Program-made: the position numbers and the translations under genes | The notes under the pieces: generated by a model | Database searches by the model: none | Told to the model about the DNA's origin: nothing | Seen by the model: the letters and a program-made list of their open reading frames with translations, nothing else | Assembly: GCF_020165495.1 (NCBI RefSeq) | Contig: NZ_JAIUIE010000009.1 | Coordinates: 1 to 64,000 of the forward strand | DNA: 64,000 nt | DNA from: Mesorhizobium sp. BR1-1-16 | GTDB taxonomy: Bacteria > Pseudomonadota > Alphaproteobacteria > Rhizobiales > Kaistiaceae | Direction of reading: 5' to 3' | In this document: positions 52,647 through 59,639 of the stretch, in pieces | Numbering within the stretch: position 1 is the first letter of the stretch | Layout: each line of letters begins with the position of its first letter

Positions 52647-54248
52647 TTACTCGGCGACGCTGATATTGCGGAAGACGAGATTGAAATTGTCCAGCGTCTG
52701 CTTGGACTTGTCTTCGAGCGCCGGGATGCCGATCGCGTCGCGCACCGTGTAGACGCCCGTGAACTCATAGGCGTTGATATCGGGCGCGAGGTCGCGGAGC
52801 ACCGTGTTGAGTTCCTTGTAGATCGCCTCGCGCTTCGCCTCGTCGGGTTCGCTGCGGCCAGCCTCGAGCAGTTCATCGACCTTGGCATCCTTGAGATGCT
52901 CGGCGGACATCCAGGTCGGCGGAACCTTGGACGAGAACATGTTGTAGAGCAGCGAATCCGGGTCAGGCGTCACCGCGGCGACCGCGATCTCGACGGCGTG
53001 CGGCGCCGTGTCCGGCTTGGTCACTTGTTCGGACACCAGCGCCCAGGGCGTCTTGATGACCTTCACAGGGAAGCCGAGTTGCGAGAAGCTTGCCTGCATC
53101 AAGAGCGCGATGCGCTCGCGCGCCGGCACCTCGGCGATCCAGGCGATATCGAGCGGGCTCGTCTTCGGATCATACTTGCACTGCGCGAGCTCTTCCTTGG
53201 CCTTCGCCATGTCCTGCTGGTAGTCCGGCAGGCTCTTGTCATAGCCGAGCAGGCCGCTTGGCAGCGGGCCCTTCATCGGGATGCCCTGAGCATATTTGTC
53301 GTCGATCTTCAGGATCTTCAGGGCCGTCGCATAGTCGAAGGCATAGGTCAGCGCTCGGCGGCAATGGACGTCGTCCAGGGGTGCACGGGTGGTGTTCAGC
53401 TTGATATATTCGCCGGTCGCGCCGCCGGCCTCGGATGCGAGCTTGATCCCCTTCTCGGCTGCGAGCGCACGGATGACTTCCGGCGGCAGCCAGAGATCGG
53501 CGATGTCGTGCTCGCCGCGCGACATCAGCGCGCGCACGGTCGGCGCCTCGATGCCATAGCGATAGCGGACCTTGTCGGGTGCGTTCTCGCCGAAGCCGAG
53601 GAAATAGTCCGGGAACTTGACCATAACGGTCTCGGACTGCGGGTTCTGGCTCTCGACCTTGTAGGCGCCCGAGCCGGCGTCATGGGCCGACATCCACGCA
53701 TCGGCGTAATCGCCGAACTCGCCATATTTTCCGTCGACCTTGTTGGCCATGACGGTCTTGGAATCGACGATCGGCAGACGGACCAGGGCCGCCAGGAACG
53801 GCGCATAAGGCTCCGTCAGCGTGAACTTGACCGTCAGCGGATCAATGGCCTCGGCCTTCTCGACCCGGCCGGCGAAGAGGCTGGAGAAGCCCTGCCCCAT
53901 CGCGATCATGCGATTGAGCGAGAAGACGACATCATCAGCCGTCAGCGAATTGCCGGAGTGAAACTTCACGCCATCCTTCAGCTTGAACGTGAAGGTCTTG
54001 CCGTCGGTGGTCCACTCGGTCGCCAGCAGGGGCTGAACGCCAGGACCGCCCGCCTTCGGGAAGACCAGCGTGTCATAGATGTTCACCGCCAGCACGGTGT
54101 CGGCATAATCCGTCGCCTTGGCCGGATCGATCTCGCCAATCGGCGATTCGTCGAGGCGCAAGATGCGCTCCGCGAAAGACGGCGTCGCCAGCCAGACCGG
54201 CGAGGCGAGGATGAAGGCCGAGGCCAATGCCCTTGCTCGAAAATTCAT
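52647..54248 (-). CDS. Peptide-type ABC transporter substrate-binding protein (family 5)
   Basis: 533-aa DppA/OppA-type periplasmic protein. The signal peptide is ARALASAFILASPVWLATPSFA, with cleavage near residue 26. The mature start RILRLDESPIGEIDPAKATDYADTVLAVNIYDTLVF is typical. GAGGGGAA precedes ATG 54248; the frame is open 26 codons further. It is the first gene of the long minus-strand run, opposite the XRE-cupin regulator. The whole set suggests import of a small peptide-like or cyclic amide compound. Confidence 0.94.
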   Translation of the reverse strand: MNFRARALASAFILASPVWLATPSFAERILRLDESPIGEIDPAKATDYADTVLAVNIYDTLVFPKAGGPGVQPLLATEWTTDGKTFTFKLKDGVKFHSGNSLTADDVVFSLNRMIAMGQGFSSLFAGRVEKAEAIDPLTVKFTLTEPYAPFLAALVRLPIVDSKTVMANKVDGKYGEFGDYADAWMSAHDAGSGAYKVESQNPQSETVMVKFPDYFLGFGENAPDKVRYRYGIEAPTVRALMSRGEHDIADLWLPPEVIRALAAEKGIKLASEAGGATGEYIKLNTTRAPLDDVHCRRALTYAFDYATALKILKIDDKYAQGIPMKGPLPSGLLGYDKSLPDYQQDMAKAKEELAQCKYDPKTSPLDIAWIAEVPARERIALLMQASFSQLGFPVKVIKTPWALVSEQVTKPDTAPHAVEIAVAAVTPDPDSLLYNMFSSKVPPTWMSAEHLKDAKVDELLEAGRSEPDEAKREAIYKELNTVLRDLAPDINAYEFTGVYTVRDAIGIPALEDKSKQTLDNFNLVFRNISVAE

Positions 54249-54355
54249 CGAAATTCCCCTCTGTCCCAGAAGCTGCCGCGTCGCCGCGTCCCCGACTTCG
54301 AGCCGAAGACAGCGCATCGACGCCACTCCGGATGGAAACCATAGCGAGGAAATTT

Positions 54356-54373
54356 ATTTCGTATAGGCGAAAT
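54356..54373. promoter_or_regulatory. Palindrome in the divergent promoter region before the XRE-cupin gene
   Basis: Arms ATTTCG and CGAAAT are exact reverse complements with a six-base spacer (TATAGG). The element lies within the 404-base intergenic region (54249-54652), which is AT-rich around it and has no gene I can support. Its position, about 110 bases from the binding-protein start, suits an operator for the XRE-cupin regulator. Confidence 0.38.
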
Positions 54374-54652
54374 TTAGCGCATTGGCGCCTCGGCGATGCG
54401 CAAACGCTGCATTCTGCTTTCCGGAAGCGCTGATCCGTATCCATACCCGACGCGGCTAAAAACGAACCGAGGCGGTAAATTCCGTGTTTTCTGGCCTATT
54501 CCTGCCGTGGGCGACGCAAAACGAAGTCGCCCGAGCTGTGCGTCGATTGTGCACAATTTGTCGACATTTCTTTCTGGCGATCGATGACCAGCGGGCTTTG
54601 CCAAGGCACCGGGAATCCTGTAGTTCAAAAATGTTTCTGATAGGAATGCCTG

Positions 54653-55294
54653 ATGGCCTCGCCTTCAAAGACTGCCCGCCCTGCAACACCCTCCGGCGTC
54701 GAGCCTGTTCCGCCCCGCGGAAGCGAGCCGATCGCAACCATCCTGCGCCGGCTTCGACGCGAAGCCGGCTTCACGCTGCAGGAACTCGGCGACCGCTGCG
54801 GCCTCGCGTCCTCGACATTGTCGAAGATCGAGAACGGCCAGATGTCTCCGACCTATGATACGATCCTGCGCGTGGCCGGGGGTCTCGGCCTCGACATGGC
54901 CGAACTGTTCACCGGCAAGGTACCGAACGATATCGGCGGCCGCAGGACCGTGACGCGCAGCGGACAGGGCGTCATTCGCAGCACCGCACAATATTCCTAT
55001 GAGATGCTGGCGGCAGAGCTCTCGGGAAAGCAGTTCATCCCTCTACTCACCACGATCGACGCACGGTCGATCAGCGATTTTCCGAGCCTCGTCCGCCATT
55101 CCGGCGAAGAGTTCTTCTATGTCCTCTGCGGACAGGTGACGCTGCATACCGAGCATTACGCCCCCACTGTGCTCAATGTTGGCGACAGTTGCTATTTCGA
55201 CAGCTCGATGGGTCACGCCTGTGTCTCCACGGGATCGGAGCCGGCGCAGATTCTCTGGATCTGCTCGCGCGTGGTGGCCCCGCTGACAGCCTGA
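54653..55294 (+). CDS. XRE family transcriptional regulator with cupin sensor domain
   Basis: 213-aa regulator. Residues about 27-85 form the helix-turn-helix (ILRRLRREAGFTLQELGDRCG, LASSTLSKIENGQMSPTYDTI), and residues about 115-205 a cupin barrel with a metal-binding-like HSGEEFFYVLCGQVTLHTEHY and YFDSSMGHACVS. This architecture often controls amine and amino-acid catabolism. Its divergence from the importer-hydrolase run points to control of that run. AGGA precedes ATG 54653. Confidence 0.92.
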   Translation: MASPSKTARPATPSGVEPVPPRGSEPIATILRRLRREAGFTLQELGDRCGLASSTLSKIENGQMSPTYDTILRVAGGLGLDMAELFTGKVPNDIGGRRTVTRSGQGVIRSTAQYSYEMLAAELSGKQFIPLLTTIDARSISDFPSLVRHSGEEFFYVLCGQVTLHTEHYAPTVLNVGDSCYFDSSMGHACVSTGSEPAQILWICSRVVAPLTA

Positions 55295-55328
55295 GCGACC
55301 CGGCAATTGCCGCGATATCGATTTTCTG

Positions 55329-55339
55329 TTATCAGATAA
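55329..55339. promoter_or_regulatory. Short palindrome just upstream of the ribbon-helix-helix gene
   Basis: TTATC-A-GATAA lies three bases before the start codon at 55343, in place of a recognisable ribosome site. Small RHH proteins usually repress their own genes, so it might be an autoregulatory site; by chance alone such a short palindrome is not rare. Confidence 0.3.
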
Positions 55340-55342
55340 GAC

Positions 55343-55600
55343 ATGAGTTCAGACGGACCTTTCGACCGCAGATTGCGAGGCAGGCCGCGCACAGACGCGA
55401 CGCTTGTCGGCGTACGCATGGCGCCCGAGCTTCTCGGCGCGCTCGACCGATTCATCACGGAAGAGGCGCCGTCGATGTCGCGGCCCGAAGCCTTGCGGGT
55501 CGCCTTCCGTCAATGGGCCGAGAGCCGCGGCTACCTGCCTGCGCTTCCGCCCGATGAAGGCAAGCGGCCATCGGAGCTCAATGCGGGCAATGATGGCTGA
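55343..55600 (+). CDS. Small ribbon-helix-helix-like protein
   Basis: 85-aa protein. The core VGVRMAPELLGALDRFITEE followed by MSRPEALRVAFRQWAE is typical of a ribbon-helix-helix (CopG/Arc-like) DNA-binding fold: one strand and two helices. The N-terminal RRLRGRPRTDA is basic and could also contact DNA. No toxin gene accompanies it, so an antitoxin role is not supported. It precedes the small lipoprotein genes; its function is unknown. Confidence 0.7.
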   Translation: MSSDGPFDRRLRGRPRTDATLVGVRMAPELLGALDRFITEEAPSMSRPEALRVAFRQWAESRGYLPALPPDEGKRPSELNAGNDG

Positions 55601-55644
55601 GGCGGCCGCAGGGCCAGGATGTTTCAACCGGGGGTGAAGTCCAA

Positions 55645-55821
55645 ATGCGTGTTCTTCTTCTGTCACTGGCCGTCGTCGCCAGCCTCTCAGCAATTGCCGG
55701 CTGCTCCAGCACAGGCTCGGGCAACTCGGCAGCCGCCGTCGATATGATGAACAATCCCGTCAATGCCTGCGGCTCGGACGGAAGTTCGAACATCAATGAT
55801 TGCAACGGCGGCCGCCGTTGA
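55645..55821 (+). CDS. Small lipoprotein, copy 1 of a tandem family
   Basis: 58-aa predicted lipoprotein. The signal peptide MRVLLLSLAVVASLSAIAGC ends in a lipobox, with Cys20 as the lipidated residue. The mature part is only about 38 residues, Ser/Asn/Gly-rich, with the motif MMNNPVNACGSDGSSNINDC holding two cysteines. GGGGTGAAG lies upstream. Two paralogues follow at 56299 and 56670. The motif matches no family I know. Confidence 0.72.
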   Translation: MRVLLLSLAVVASLSAIAGCSSTGSGNSAAAVDMMNNPVNACGSDGSSNINDCNGGRR

Positions 55822-55872
55822 TCGAAACGGCGCCGGGTAACCGGCGCCGATTTCTGGGATCGGAGGACACAG

Positions 55873-56217
55873 ATGAAACGGTTCGTTATCGCCGCAGCAC
55901 TCGTCCTCATAGGTTCGATCCCCGCTTTCGCACAATGGGAGCCGGTGACGCCCATCGATCCGGCCCGTTTCCGCAAGCTCTCCTGCGACGAGATCGCAGT
56001 GCGGATTCAGAAGCTGAACGTGCCGATCGGCGACAACAACAGCACGATCGCCGGATTTCGCCGCAGCCCGAGCCTCGAATTTCTGCTGCTCGGTACAGGC
56101 TCGCGGAGCCCGGAATTCACTGCCATGGTTGCCAAGGCACGGGGCGAGCGCAATGCGCTGATCGCCGTTGCCGTCGAAAAGGACTGCGCAGCCAAACGTC
56201 TGGTGCCGATGCGTTGA
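55873..56217 (+). CDS. Small secreted protein of unknown function
   Basis: 114-aa protein with a signal peptide (MKRFVIAAALVLIGSIPAFA, cleaved near residue 20). The mature part is about 94 residues, with SCDEIAVRIQKLNVPIGDNN and a second Cys near the end (VEKDCAAKR), which could form a disulfide. GGAGGACAC precedes the ATG. It lies between the first and second small lipoprotein genes. I do not recognise the family. Confidence 0.75.
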   Translation: MKRFVIAAALVLIGSIPAFAQWEPVTPIDPARFRKLSCDEIAVRIQKLNVPIGDNNSTIAGFRRSPSLEFLLLGTGSRSPEFTAMVAKARGERNALIAVAVEKDCAAKRLVPMR

Positions 56218-56298
56218 GGCCAGCTTTACAGCCTGTGTCGCTCTCTGTCCGCCGGCGCTAGCGCCTTCTGCCCCAATCCCGTGAGCTTGAATCGACCG

Positions 56299-56466
56299 AT
56301 GCGCGCACTCCTCCTCGTCCTCGCGATCGCTGCACCGCTTTGCGGACTTTCGGCGTGCACAGGCGCCGGCGATAATGTCGGGGCGGTGCGGGCGATGAAC
56401 AATCCGCCGAACACCTGCGGCCCTGGCGGCAGCCGCAACGTCGAAGATTGCAAGGGACATCCCTGA
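56299..56466 (+). CDS. Small lipoprotein, copy 2 of a tandem family
   Basis: 55-aa predicted lipoprotein starting at ATG 56299 (an upstream GTG at 56281 is in frame). MRALLLVLAIAAPLCGLSAC is a lipoprotein signal with LSAC as lipobox. The mature part carries AMNNPPNTCGPGGSRNVEDC, the same motif as in copies 1 and 3, again with two cysteines 11 apart. Confidence 0.7.
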   Translation: MRALLLVLAIAAPLCGLSACTGAGDNVGAVRAMNNPPNTCGPGGSRNVEDCKGHP

Positions 56467-56669
56467 ACGGCGCCCTTCCGGCAATCCCCGCGAAACTTCC
56501 GCTCTTTTGCCGACGTTTAAGGTTTATGCCGTCACCTCTGGCAGGGAGCGGCTGTCGTTGCGCTGGGCAAGGCGATGGAAGTTTCGATCTTCTGGCGTTG
56601 GCCGGGAGATATTCGCGCCTGATGTCACGCCGCTGATCTGCTTCATCGATCAAGAAACCGGAGGTTCCG

Positions 56670-56837
56670 ATGCGTCTCTTCTTCCTTTCGCTCGCGATGG
56701 TTGCTGGCCTTGCTGCCGTTTCCGGCTGTTCCAGCACCGGCAACAATGCCGCCGCGATCCAGGCAATGGACAACCCGCCGAATTCCTGCGGCCCCGGCGG
56801 CAGCCAGAACATCGAGGACTGCGACACCATCCGCTGA
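56670..56837 (+). CDS. Small lipoprotein, copy 3 of a tandem family
   Basis: 55-aa predicted lipoprotein. The signal MRLFFLSLAMVAGLAAVSGC ends in the lipobox VSGC, and the mature start SSTGNNAAAI resembles copy 1. The motif AMDNPPNSCGPGGSQNIEDC is nearly that of copy 2. GGAGG lies just upstream of ATG 56670. The 203-base gap before it (56467-56669) and the 233 bases after it hold no gene I can support. Confidence 0.72.
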   Translation: MRLFFLSLAMVAGLAAVSGCSSTGNNAAAIQAMDNPPNSCGPGGSQNIEDCDTIR

Positions 56838-57070
56838 TCCCGCCGCTCATCAGGGCCCGCTTGCTCAAAGGCAGCCGGCCCTGATGATCCCATGCATCGC
56901 AACATCCGATCGTCGTATCGCTGCGGCAGTTTTAGATCCGCGTGGCCTAGCCGCGATGCATTCGCTGATCTCTAAGATTTGATGAAGATAGAGCCGGATT
57001 TAGACGGTCCGATTAACCTTTTGCCGGGCCGCGGGCGCTAATCCTGCCGCATCGACAGGAGCGGAACGCC

Positions 57071-58105
57071 ATGGGTCGCACGGCGCGGACGAAGGCGCGG
57101 GTCGACTGGGTCGACTACGCAAAAGGGTTCTGCATCATCATGGTCGTGATGATGCATTCGACGCTCGGCGTCGAGAAAGCCGCCGGCGCCGAAGGCTGGA
57201 TGACGTATATCGTCGCCTTCGCCAAGCCGTTCCGCATGCCTGATTTCTTCATGATTTCCGGCCTGTTCCTCGCCCAGGTCATCAATCGCGACTGGCGCAC
57301 TTATGGCGACCGCAAGATCGTCCATTTCGGTTATTTCTACGTGCTCTGGCTGGTTATTCAGTTCGCCTTCAAGGCGCCCGGCATGATCGCCGACGAGGGC
57401 GCCATGGGCGCTGTGCGGGAATTCCTGCTGGCATTCATCGATCCGTTCGGCACGCTCTGGTTCATTTTCCTGCTGCCGGTCTTCTTCGCCGTCACCAAGC
57501 TGCTGCGCGGCGTTCCGGTCTGGCTCGTCTGGCTCGCGGCAGCCGCGCTCGAGACGCTGCCAATCCAGACTGGCTGGGTGATCCCGGACGAGTTCGCGGC
57601 ACGCTTCGTCTATTTCTATTCCGGCTACATCTTCGCGCCGCTGATCTTCCGCTTCGCGGCGCGCGTCATCGACCGCCCCGTCGAGGCGGCGGCAGGGCTG
57701 GCGCTCTGGGCCATACTCGAAGGCGTTGCCGTCTTCGGCGGCATTTCCGAAATGCCTATTGTCAGTCTTGGCCTCGGCCTGCTCGGGGCCGCCGCCGTCA
57801 TCGCTTTCTCGGCCCTCCTCTCGAAGAACCACCGCCTCGGCTGGCTACGCTATTGCGGACAGAATTCGATCGTCATCTACCTCGCCTTCTTCCTGCCGAT
57901 GGCCGCGACACGAACGCTCCTGCTCAAGACCGGGGTCATTCCCGACCTCGGCACCGTGTCGCTGATCGTCACCGCCGTCGCCGTGGTCACGCCGATCCTG
58001 TTCTTCTGGCTGGTGCGCGGCACACGCTTCCGCTTCCTGTTCGAACGTCCTGCCTGGGCAAGGCTGGAACGAAGCCCTGCGCCGTCGCTTGCGGCCGCCG
58101 AGTAG
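57071..58105 (+). CDS. Acyltransferase family membrane protein (acyltransferase-3, OpgC-like)
   Basis: 344-aa integral membrane protein with about ten helices. RVDWVDYAKGFCIIMVVMMH is the typical first segment with the conserved His near residue 29, and FRMPDFFMISGLFL is the second conserved motif with the catalytic-region Phe-rich stretch. Members transfer acyl groups (acetyl, succinyl) to surface polysaccharides, glucans or lipids. Substrate is unknown. CAGGAGCGG precedes ATG 57071; the C-terminus is a short basic cytoplasmic tail. Confidence 0.88.
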   Translation: MGRTARTKARVDWVDYAKGFCIIMVVMMHSTLGVEKAAGAEGWMTYIVAFAKPFRMPDFFMISGLFLAQVINRDWRTYGDRKIVHFGYFYVLWLVIQFAFKAPGMIADEGAMGAVREFLLAFIDPFGTLWFIFLLPVFFAVTKLLRGVPVWLVWLAAAALETLPIQTGWVIPDEFAARFVYFYSGYIFAPLIFRFAARVIDRPVEAAAGLALWAILEGVAVFGGISEMPIVSLGLGLLGAAAVIAFSALLSKNHRLGWLRYCGQNSIVIYLAFFLPMAATRTLLLKTGVIPDLGTVSLIVTAVAVVTPILFFWLVRGTRFRFLFERPAWARLERSPAPSLAAAE

Positions 58106-58172
58106 CCAATCTCGCGCCGATCTCTCATCGCCCCCCTCGCCGACTGGGCCCTGCAGCGCTAGTTCAGCGCGG

Positions 58173-59639
58173 ATGACCCATGCCCATGCTCCCGCCCTTG
58201 TCTGGTTTCGCGACGATCTTCGCCTTGCCGACAATCCCGCGCTGACGGCCGCCATCAAAAGCGGCCGTCCGCTCGCACTCGTCTACTGCCTGGACGAGGT
58301 GAGCGATGGCATCCGTCCGCTCGGCGGCGCAACGCGCTGGTGGCTGCATCATTCGCTGGCGCGCCTCTCGGAAGCGCTGGCCGCCAAGGGCCACCGGCTG
58401 ATCCTTCGTCGCGGCCAGGCCACAAAGGTGATCGAGGAGCTTGTCGACGAGGTCGGTGCCGGCGCCGTGTTCTGGAACCGTCGCTATGGCGGCGCCGAGC
58501 GCGCTATCGACGCCGCTCTCAAGGCACGGCTGAAGGAAAAGGCGATCACGGCGGAAAGCCATCAGGCCAACCTTCTGTTTGAGCCGTGGACGATAAGCAC
58601 GAAGGAAGGCCAGCCGTTTCGCGTCTACACGCCATTCTGGCGCGCCTGCCTGAGCGGTCCCCCGCCGCGCCAGCCGATGCCGGCACCCGGCGACTGGCCG
58701 CCAGCAGCGGCCGAGGTCGCCTCCGATAGCCTCGATGACTGGCGGCTGCTGCCGCGCCATCCAGATTGGGCCGGCGGATTGCGTGACGCGTGGACGCCGG
58801 GCGAGGCCGGAGCGCTGGAGCGTCTCTACGAATTTCTCGGCCACGGACTGCGCCTCTATGCGGCTCGTCGCAACGAGCCGGCCATCGATGCGACGTCCCG
58901 GATCTCGCCGTATCTCCGCTTTGGCGAGATCAGCCCGTTCCAGCTCTGGCATGCCGTCGAGGCGGCGTCGCACGCCACCTCGCCCGCCCCGCCGCGACGT
59001 TCGATCGACAAGTTCCTGTCGGAGCTCGGCTGGCGCGAATTCAGCTGGTACCTGCTGTTCCACCAGCCGGACCTCGCAACACGCAACTTCCAGCCGCGCT
59101 TCGATGCCTTCCGGTGGGCACAGCCGGATGCGAGAGCGCTCGAAGCGTGGCAGCGCGGCAGGACAGGGTTTCCCATCGTCGATGCCGGCATGCGGCAGCT
59201 CTGGCAGACGGGATGGATGCACAACCGGGTCCGCATGATCACCGCCTCGTTCCTGATCAAGAACCTTTTGATCGACTGGCGGATCGGCGAGGCCTGGTTC
59301 TGGGATACGCTCGTCGACGCCGACGCCGCCAACAATCCGGCGGGCTGGCAGTGGGTAGCGGGATCAGGCGCCGACGCCGCGCCCTATTTCCGCATCTTCA
59401 ATCCCGTCCGGCAGGGCGAGGAGCACGATCCGAAGGGCGATTATGTCCGCGCCTTCATCCCCGAACTCGCCGACAGCCCGGCGGCGGGGATTCATGCCAC
59501 CAAGAACGGCCAGGCGCAGGGCTATCCCGAACCCATCATCGATCTTGGCGCTTCCCGCCAGCGCGCTCTGGCGGCGTTCGCGGCGCTCAGAAACACCGAT
59601 CGAGGCGATGTTCCAACCGAGCCTGCCTCGACGAAATGA
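58173..59639 (+). CDS. phr: Deoxyribodipyrimidine photo-lyase
   Basis: 488-aa flavoprotein of the photolyase/cryptochrome family, which repairs pyrimidine dimers using blue light. The N-terminal antenna domain begins LVWFRDDLRLADNPAL. The FAD domain holds SRISPYLRFGEISPFQLWH, SELGWREFSWYLLFHQPDL, GFPIVDAGMRQLWQTGWMHNRVRMI and WVAGSGADAAPYFRIFNPVRQGE. Length and motifs fit class I CPD photolyases. ATG 58173 is taken as the start because homology begins just after it; the frame is open a further 28 codons. Confidence 0.95.
   Translation: MTHAHAPALVWFRDDLRLADNPALTAAIKSGRPLALVYCLDEVSDGIRPLGGATRWWLHHSLARLSEALAAKGHRLILRRGQATKVIEELVDEVGAGAVFWNRRYGGAERAIDAALKARLKEKAITAESHQANLLFEPWTISTKEGQPFRVYTPFWRACLSGPPPRQPMPAPGDWPPAAAEVASDSLDDWRLLPRHPDWAGGLRDAWTPGEAGALERLYEFLGHGLRLYAARRNEPAIDATSRISPYLRFGEISPFQLWHAVEAASHATSPAPPRRSIDKFLSELGWREFSWYLLFHQPDLATRNFQPRFDAFRWAQPDARALEAWQRGRTGFPIVDAGMRQLWQTGWMHNRVRMITASFLIKNLLIDWRIGEAWFWDTLVDADAANNPAGWQWVAGSGADAAPYFRIFNPVRQGEEHDPKGDYVRAFIPELADSPAAGIHATKNGQAQGYPEPIIDLGASRQRALAAFAALRNTDRGDVPTEPASTK

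What the first reader, a model, noticed from the sequence alone, without database searches (positions are those of the whole stretch)
55645..56837. A tandem family of three tiny lipoproteins with a shared two-cysteine motif
Three open frames of 55-58 codons each carry a lipoprotein signal and a mature part of about 35 residues ending in the pattern M-(N/D)-N-P-x-N-x-C-G-x-x-G-S-x-N-(I/V)-x-D-C. Copies 2 and 3 are nearly identical in the motif and copy 1 is more distant. The cysteines are 11 apart and could form a disulfide, and the lipid anchor leaves almost nothing but the motif. I know of no described family with this pattern. A 114-aa secreted protein lies between copies 1 and 2 and an RHH protein precedes them. 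The genes are small enough to be missed by standard gene calling.
Basis: partly seen in the sequence, partly recalled or inferred. Interest (0 to 1): 0.72.

Follow-up and report, generated by a model that had tools for sequence, protein, structure and literature searches.

The report
Kaistia-only family of tiny lipoproteins
Three very short genes in this bacterium encode small, probably lipid-anchored proteins of an apparently undescribed family, so far found only in the soil genus Kaistia, that share a precisely spaced two-cysteine loop; what they do is not known.

Summary
The three frames (55645-55821, 56299-56466, 56670-56837, + strand) belong to a real protein family: a profile finds 53 members in 13 of 14 genomes of the window's genus (Kaistia), at several loci. 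All 53 have a lipobox cysteine at residue 19-23 and keep N-x-C-G-x9-C, so the last two cysteines are exactly 11 apart, while the distance from the lipid cysteine varies from 18 to 25. Pooled dN/dS over 19 pairs is 0.15, 0.11 in the mature part. Pfam, NCBIfam, PHROGs, PADLOC and the PDB hold no family that matches beyond the signal peptide or chance. Sampled genomes outside the genus gave only signal-peptide or chance matches. The neighbouring 114-aa secreted protein is not a partner: seven genomes keep it with no lipoprotein gene beside it. Best reading: an outer-membrane lipid anchor, a linker of free length and a disulfide-closed loop that binds a constant envelope or surface partner. Anchor and loop are inferred from sequence; the binding role is a guess.

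The parts
55645..55821 (+). Lipoprotein copy 1 (58 aa; Cys20 lipobox; C-X10-C at residues 42/53)
   Evidence: dN/dS 0.04 against K. soli
56299..56466 (+). Lipoprotein copy 2 (55 aa; Cys20 lipobox; C-X10-C at residues 40/51)
   Evidence: dN/dS 0.09 against K. soli
56670..56837 (+). Lipoprotein copy 3 (55 aa; Cys20 lipobox; C-X10-C at residues 40/51)
   Evidence: dN/dS 0.03 against K. soli
55828..55849 (+). GC-rich hairpin just after copy 1, no clear T run; possible RNA end
   Evidence: sequence; best 40-nt fold -24.8 kcal/mol, 1.5th percentile of 400 random stretches; not listed by the terminator scan
56847..56887 (+). GC-rich hairpin just after copy 3; possible RNA end
   Evidence: best 40-nt fold -26.6 kcal/mol, 0.5th percentile; not listed by the terminator scan
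55343..55600 (+). Small possible ribbon-helix-helix protein (85 aa), 44 bases upstream of copy 1; linked to the lipoproteins in 6 of 7 clade-A loci
   Evidence: (weak Pfam match)
55873..56217 (+). Context, not a part: 114-aa secreted protein of the genus, kept where no lipoprotein gene lies beside it
57071..58105 (+). Context, not a part: acyltransferase-3 family membrane protein, conserved neighbour of the 114-aa gene in the genus

Best explanation
The three genes are members of a Kaistia family of micro-lipoproteins. Each is exported, lipidated on the lipobox cysteine (usually residue 20) and, having no Asp at +2, probably sent to the outer membrane. There it is a lipid anchor, a short polar linker of variable length, and a disulfide-closed 12-residue loop (most often C-G-P-G-G-[ST]-x-[ND]-I-[NE]-[DAQ]-C) as a fixed head. 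The head most likely docks to one conserved partner of the envelope or of a cell or vesicle surface, so the protein works as a tethered binding peptide, broadly like the Agrobacterium lipoprotein Atu8019. Shown: the genes, the family, the selection, the invariant spacing. Inferred from sequence: lipidation, outer-membrane address, disulfide. Guess: docking role and partner.
For: 53 members, all with lipobox Cys, all with the same C-X10-C and N-x-C-G, while the C1-C2 distance ranges 18-25: a fixed head on a length-tolerant tether. Mature part more constrained (dN/dS 0.11) than signal peptide (0.22), and the upstream DNA of orthologous groups diverges. Constancy of the head fits a constant partner better than an arms race. 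+2 residue T/S/Q/A/G in 53 of 53, never D (the +2 rule is recalled and comes from enterobacteria). Mature part mostly neutral or slightly acidic, mean -0.77, 7 of 53 positive. Shine-Dalgarno-like string before 42 of 53 starts against 21% of random stretches. Atu8019 is a studied example of a 32-aa mature, surface-exposed lipoprotein with a docking role (PMC7296081, abstract and passages).
Against: No expression, lipidation or disulfide data. No single neighbour accompanies all loci (only a minority of the neighbours was given to Pfam). AlphaFold models are poor (mean pLDDT 68 and 74, pTM 0.26 and 0.29) and the mature model has no Foldseek match in the PDB. Atu8019 is a comparison by anatomy only. 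One same-genus genome (G007) shows no member, though it is a 720-contig assembly.
Confidence: 0.4

Rival explanations
1. LptM-like assembly helper: a small outer-membrane lipoprotein that binds an outer-membrane machine (for example LptD or BAM) on the periplasmic side and aids its folding or oxidation.
For: Same size class and probable address; LptM is a ~6 kDa lipoprotein that stabilises LptD for disulfide formation (PMC10567701, abstract and passages). Strong constraint and several copies kept suit a needed envelope helper. NCBI's LptM model lists 6 of 53 members, but only at E 0.35 or worse.
Against: PF13627, the LptM motif by that paper, is not among the Pfam families that any of the 53 members match at E 1. 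A genus-only family with 2 to 8 copies per genome is odd for a core machine.
Confidence: 0.22
2. Entericidin-like toxin/antidote lipopeptides: tandem copies, one lytic and one protective.
For: Tandem tiny lipoproteins of the same length class; the entericidin model finds nothing in 14 genus genomes, so the niche could be filled by this family. An Xre/RES toxin-antitoxin-type pair lies near lipoprotein genes in several genomes (RES cluster in 6 stretches, Xre cluster in 5).
Against: No PF08085 match in 53 members. Mature parts are mostly neutral or acidic, unlike a cationic lytic peptide (recalled). Some loci hold one copy only. Entericidin matches are rare in the order anyway (12 of 199 genomes), so the absence is no sign of replacement. 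Atu8019, annotated as entericidin, was not seen to lyse cells (PMC7296081, passages).
Confidence: 0.1
3. Redox-active thiol pair: the C-X10-C opens and closes as an oxidant sink or sensor at the outer membrane.
For: Absolute conservation of both cysteines in 53 of 53.
Against: Not a C-x-x-C motif; residues around the cysteines are conserved as a binding loop would need; no thiol-redox enzyme among the neighbours given to Pfam other than a class II ribonucleotide reductase at locus C, most neighbours not being annotated.
Confidence: 0.1
4. Precursor of a disulfide-closed peptide signal, cut from the anchor and released.
For: Conserved C-terminal block of about 17 residues, variable linker, C-terminal Arg in 36 of 53, several paralogues per genome.
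Against: No neighbour common to all loci that could be protease, exporter or receptor; no conserved cut site seen in the linker.
Confidence: 0.07
5. Not genes: a conserved DNA or RNA feature or decayed repeats.
For: Very short frames; multi-copy.
Against: dN/dS 0.15 over 19 pairs; start, signal peptide and stop in place in 53 of 53 (two with TTG starts); no Rfam match in 54000-58500; upstream DNA not conserved.
Confidence: 0.02

Closest known systems
Atu8019 of Agrobacterium tumefaciens (annotated entericidin A/B family)
   Same: 53-aa precursor, mature 32 aa, lipobox Cys22, small outer-membrane lipoprotein (PMC7296081, passages).
   Different: No member of this family matches the entericidin model, and that model finds nothing in 14 genus genomes. 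Atu8019 itself was not aligned here, and its cysteines beyond C22 were not checked.
LptM (YifL), PF13627 / NF047847
   Same: Tiny outer-membrane lipoprotein with a short conserved motif.
   Different: LptM's conserved motif overlaps the lipobox and the mature N-terminus (PMC10567701, passages); here it lies 18-25 residues further on and holds two cysteines. No PF13627 match; NF047847 only at E 0.35 or worse, 6 of 53.
Rz1-type outer spanins of phages
   Same: Small outer-membrane lipoproteins; weak PHROG hits for 21 of 53 precursors (phrog_3198, best E 2.3e-4).
   Different: No spanin hit among the 52 mature parts scanned, so the likeness is in the signal peptide region. Viral contigs gave no relative.
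YgdI/YgdR (NF033216) and alanine-zipper (NF040598) lipoproteins
   Same: Small lipoproteins; weak NCBIfam matches, 14 of 53 (best E 0.0023) and 5 of 53 (best E 0.011).
   Different: Where positions were shown, the match lies at or near the signal peptide (residues 5-23 of copy 3 for YgdI/YgdR, 4-43 of copy 1 for the zipper), with 12.3 and 15.9 bits against cut-offs of 42 and 43.

Membership tests
Bacterial lipoprotein (generic) | Signal peptide with lipobox ending in Cys | tested here: met
   53 of 53 have a Cys preceded by G, A or S at residue 19-23; by script and eye, no LipoP or SignalP run
Bacterial lipoprotein (generic) | Lipid modification in the cell | not testable with these tools
   needs globomycin or mass spectrometry
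Entericidin (PF08085) | Match to the family model | tested here: not met
   53 members scanned, no PF08085 at E 1; 0 of 14 genus genomes, control rings in E. coli and Caulobacter
Entericidin (PF08085) | Toxin and antidote as a tandem pair | tested here: inconclusive
   tandem copies at several loci, single copies at others; activity not tested
LptM (PF13627) | Match to the lipobox-overlapping motif | tested here: not met
   no PF13627 among families matched by 53 members at E 1; NF047847 in 6 of 53, best E 0.35
LptM (PF13627) | Binding to LptDE | not testable with these tools
   needs pull-down
Phage outer spanin (Rz1) | Similarity outside the signal peptide | tested here: not met
   no spanin family among 52 mature parts at E 1
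Phage outer spanin (Rz1) | Gene nested in or beside Rz in a lysis cassette | not tested
   no prophage search was made; the neighbours annotated are not lysis genes
This family (defined here) | Lipobox Cys, second Cys 18-25 residues on, N-x-C-G, x9, C, short tail | tested here: met
   53 of 53

The most novel reading that the evidence does not exclude
Kaistia carries a genus-specific system of lipid-anchored, disulfide-cyclised peptides, 2 to 8 paralogues per genome, whose constant loop is a ligand for a dedicated receptor on the same or neighbouring cells: a displayed or released peptide signal in a Gram-negative bacterium.
Probability: 0.07. Interest if true: 0.8.

Novelty: new variant of a known kind. 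Interest (0 to 1): 0.5.

Why it matters
It is a well-supported, genus-wide micro-lipoprotein family that none of the family libraries searched here recognises. The head is small enough (about 17 residues) to be synthesised and tested as a peptide, and the genus offers natural contrasts: one clade has the genes at this site and another does not. It is a compact test case for how a short, taxon-restricted gene family becomes fixed and expands.

Tried and rejected
Selenocysteine or stop read-through: several matches were flagged '1 TGA inside'. Reading the family members among them showed TGA as the normal stop right after the last cysteine.

Relatives outside the genus: A1 profile in 61 genomes; full-length profile A2 in 28 family, 397 order and 385 class genomes; mature-part profile A3 in order and class samples of the same size. 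Outside-genus matches at the limits used: 1 (E 0.02), 2 (E 0.002), 7 (E 0.002), 3 (E 0.01), 5 (E 0.01), and many weak ones, best 9.2e-4. I read the best (L021) and all 18 (L082, L099, L100, L104-L110, L125-L127, L134-L138). They are signal peptides of other proteins, stretches in long frames, an antisense frame, or short chance stretches (L138 has an in-frame stop; L134 was judged from all six frames). The order and class runs score only about 16-20 first-look candidates per genome, so a divergent relative could be missed.

Partner gene: the 114-aa protein (rejected); the pentapeptide protein of locus B (7 of 14 genomes: six of clade B, plus a 38% match in G008); phasin and D-Ala-D-Ala carboxypeptidase at locus C. 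An Xre/RES pair lies near both locus B and locus C (RES cluster in 6 stretches) and a class II ribonucleotide reductase is at locus C and in one locus-B stretch, so B and C are probably one ancestral site. The RES gene was not seen at locus A or in five of the eleven B and C stretches.

EcfG-type stress promoter upstream: 0 of 53. Sigma-70-like promoters in 55300-57100: none. Rfam: none in 54000-58500. Structure: two AlphaFold jobs, low confidence; Foldseek on the mature model against PDB, no match. Sequence profile against PDB: one chance match, E 0.89. PHROGs: besides spanin, phrog_542 (no function) matched 10 of 53 precursors, best E 2.1e-4, and none of 52 mature parts. PADLOC: one candidate family, 3 of 53, best E 0.014. 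Plasmids: no match for copy 3; two Paraburkholderia records at E 2 for one other mature part.

Papers: 'Kaistia'+'lipoprotein', 'Kaistia'+'genome' (25 of 96 listed), 'Kaistia'+'small proteins' (none), 'small lipoprotein'+'Alphaproteobacteria'+'disulfide'+'outer membrane', 'taxonomically restricted'+'lipoprotein'+'small proteins'+'Alphaproteobacteria' (none): no listed title or abstract start describes this family. Subscription journals are mostly not held.

Full report
WHAT IS THERE. Each starts ATG-Arg, has a 19-residue hydrophobic signal ending in a lipobox and Cys20, and a mature part of 39, 36 and 36 residues in which the last two cysteines are 11 apart. The neighbours in order are a helix-turn-helix/cupin regulator, a small protein with a weak ribbon-helix-helix match (E 0.03, under the Pfam cut-off), copy 1, a 114-aa secreted protein, copy 2, copy 3 and an acyltransferase-3 membrane protein.

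THE FAMILY. A first profile of the three (A1) over 61 genomes found clear matches only in the window's own genus; the best outside match (E 9.2e-4) is a signal peptide with no cysteine motif. The degenerate scan of the species-genome collection confirmed 6 loci: four in Kaistia soli, K. hirudinis and K. dalseonensis, and two on contigs of a MAG labelled Bosea. Contig lengths equal those of G001, G005, G008 and G013, so the genus is Kaistia, and the 'Bosea' MAG is placed in the same genus here. A profile of 53 members (A2) gives 54 matches in the genus: the 53 members and one weak match in G008 (E 0.012, model positions 1-38, not read). The members lie in 13 of 14 genomes, 2 to 8 per genome. 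The exception, G007, is a 720-contig assembly; by its acyltransferase it falls inside clade B, a seven-genome group with 100/100 support, though the forks within the group around G007 have only 89-91%. The pentapeptide neighbour of the clade-B locus is missing from it too, so loss and assembly gap are both possible.

INVARIANTS. In 53 of 53 the lipobox cysteine is present, N-x-C-G is present and the third cysteine is exactly 11 after the second; the mature part has no further cysteine. The C1-C2 distance varies from 18 to 25, and the tail after the last cysteine from 0 to 20 residues, mostly 4-5. Members were picked by profile, and N-x-C-G and a Cys after G/A/S/N were used to locate the motif and lipobox; the C-X10-C spacing itself was not used as a filter.

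SELECTION. Over 19 pairs of close relatives chosen by me as likely orthologues, Nei-Gojobori counts give pS 0.378 and pN 0.074, dN/dS 0.147; mature part 0.113; signal peptide 0.218; single pairs range from 0.03 to 0.33 over the whole protein. For the window against K. soli the three copies give 0.04, 0.09 and 0.03. Upstream DNA of orthologous groups diverges. A Shine-Dalgarno-like string lies before 42 of 53 starts against 21% of random stretches. No frame of this make-up arose in 10 Markov-2 replicates of 370,671 bases in which 49 real frames match, all family members.

GENOMIC SETTING. Members sit at locus A (this one; 7 genomes), locus B beside a pentapeptide-repeat protein (6 genomes), locus C beside a phasin, a D-Ala-D-Ala carboxypeptidase and a class II ribonucleotide reductase (5 genomes), two further sites each shared by two genomes, and singletons. 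Locus B and C are probably one ancestral site: an Xre/RES toxin-antitoxin-type pair lies near members at both, and the reductase is in one locus-B stretch as well; the second copies of locus B and the copies of locus C from four genomes also group in the tree (14 rows, 92/91, below the starred level), while the two locus-C copies of G008 do not join them. The tree has few columns (57), but copies 1, 2 and 3 each group with counterparts in G001, G006 and G013, so these tandem duplications are older than those species. The 114-aa gene is in 14 of 14 genus genomes and 0 of 14 others of the family. In 7 of 7 clade-B genomes it lies next to the acyltransferase gene, with no lipoprotein motif and no match to the RHH protein in the fetched stretches, which reach about 1 to 1.5 kb upstream. 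In clade A the RHH gene is beside the lipoprotein genes in 6 of 7 loci. So lipoprotein genes, mostly with the RHH gene, were gained or lost at this site, and the 114-aa protein is a bystander. Whether clade B has the RHH gene elsewhere was not searched.

OUTSIDE THE GENUS. Full-length and mature-part profiles over 28 family (full-length only), 397 order and 385 class genomes (samples that overlap in part) gave no convincing relative (reading). The best outside match of the mature profile (E 4.3e-4) is a 20-residue stretch inside a 428-aa frame; one short frame (G143) is antisense to a 200-aa frame. Viral contigs: no relative. Limits are given under Tried and rejected.

KNOWN FAMILIES. For the 53 members: Pfam best E 0.013, NCBIfam best E 0.0021 (25 of 32 families shown), PADLOC 0.014, PHROGs 2.1e-4 (25 of 36 families shown). 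The PHROG matches below E 0.6 disappear when the signal peptide is removed; the best NCBIfam ones were not traced for every member, but the one shown for copy 3 covers residues 5-23. PDB: one chance match. Entericidin: 0 of 14 genus genomes, control positive in E. coli and Caulobacter, but rare in the order at large (12 of 199), so the absence tells little. Closest by anatomy is Atu8019 of Agrobacterium, a 53-aa precursor of a 32-aa lipoprotein that is surface exposed, carried by vesicles and involved in docking, with no lysis seen (PMC7296081: abstract and passages). LptM is the other yardstick (PMC10567701: abstract and passages). A Sinorhizobium small-protein study notes that lipoproteins are often missed in annotation (PMC10117765: passages).

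HOW IT PROBABLY WORKS. A constrained head at variable distance from a lipid anchor reads as a tethered binding peptide; constancy of the head argues for a constant partner rather than an arms race or kin polymorphism. Mostly neutral or acidic charge argues against a lytic peptide. Periplasmic oxidation would close the loop. No step beyond the sequence is shown. AlphaFold gives a short helix before the loop and no confident fold, and no PDB fold matches the mature model.

VERDICT. Observation confirmed; a real, apparently undescribed family, restricted to the genus as far as sampled; function open. Interest moderate: solid and testable, but small orphan lipoprotein families are not in themselves surprising.

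Noticed in passing
window 55873-56217: The 114-aa secreted protein is itself a genus-wide orphan: 14 of 14 Kaistia genomes, 0 of 14 others of the family, no Pfam match at E 1 and no NCBIfam match over a cut-off; in all 14 it lies within about 2.2 kb of the acyltransferase gene.
   Followed up: partly
L050:9229-9816, L053:52-597, L064:4225-5091; also L052, L055, L056: An Xre/MbcA/ParS-type antitoxin gene and a RES-domain gene lie near lipoprotein genes at loci B and C (RES cluster in 6 stretches, Xre cluster in 5), in L064 about 120 bases before the first lipoprotein gene.
   Followed up: partly
L049:5595-5810: One member in G004 has 20 residues after the last cysteine instead of the usual 0-8.
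   Followed up: no
L062, L063, L068, L069, L071 and L057 members: Six members end exactly at the last cysteine; five of them have the variant loop C-G-x-G-F-K-R instead of C-G-P-G-G.
   Followed up: partly
L039, L043 (contigs JAFKFV010000010.1 and JAFKFV010000019.1): A MAG labelled Bosea has contigs of the same length as two of genome G013, which is placed in the window's genus; the public name looks wrong.
   Followed up: partly
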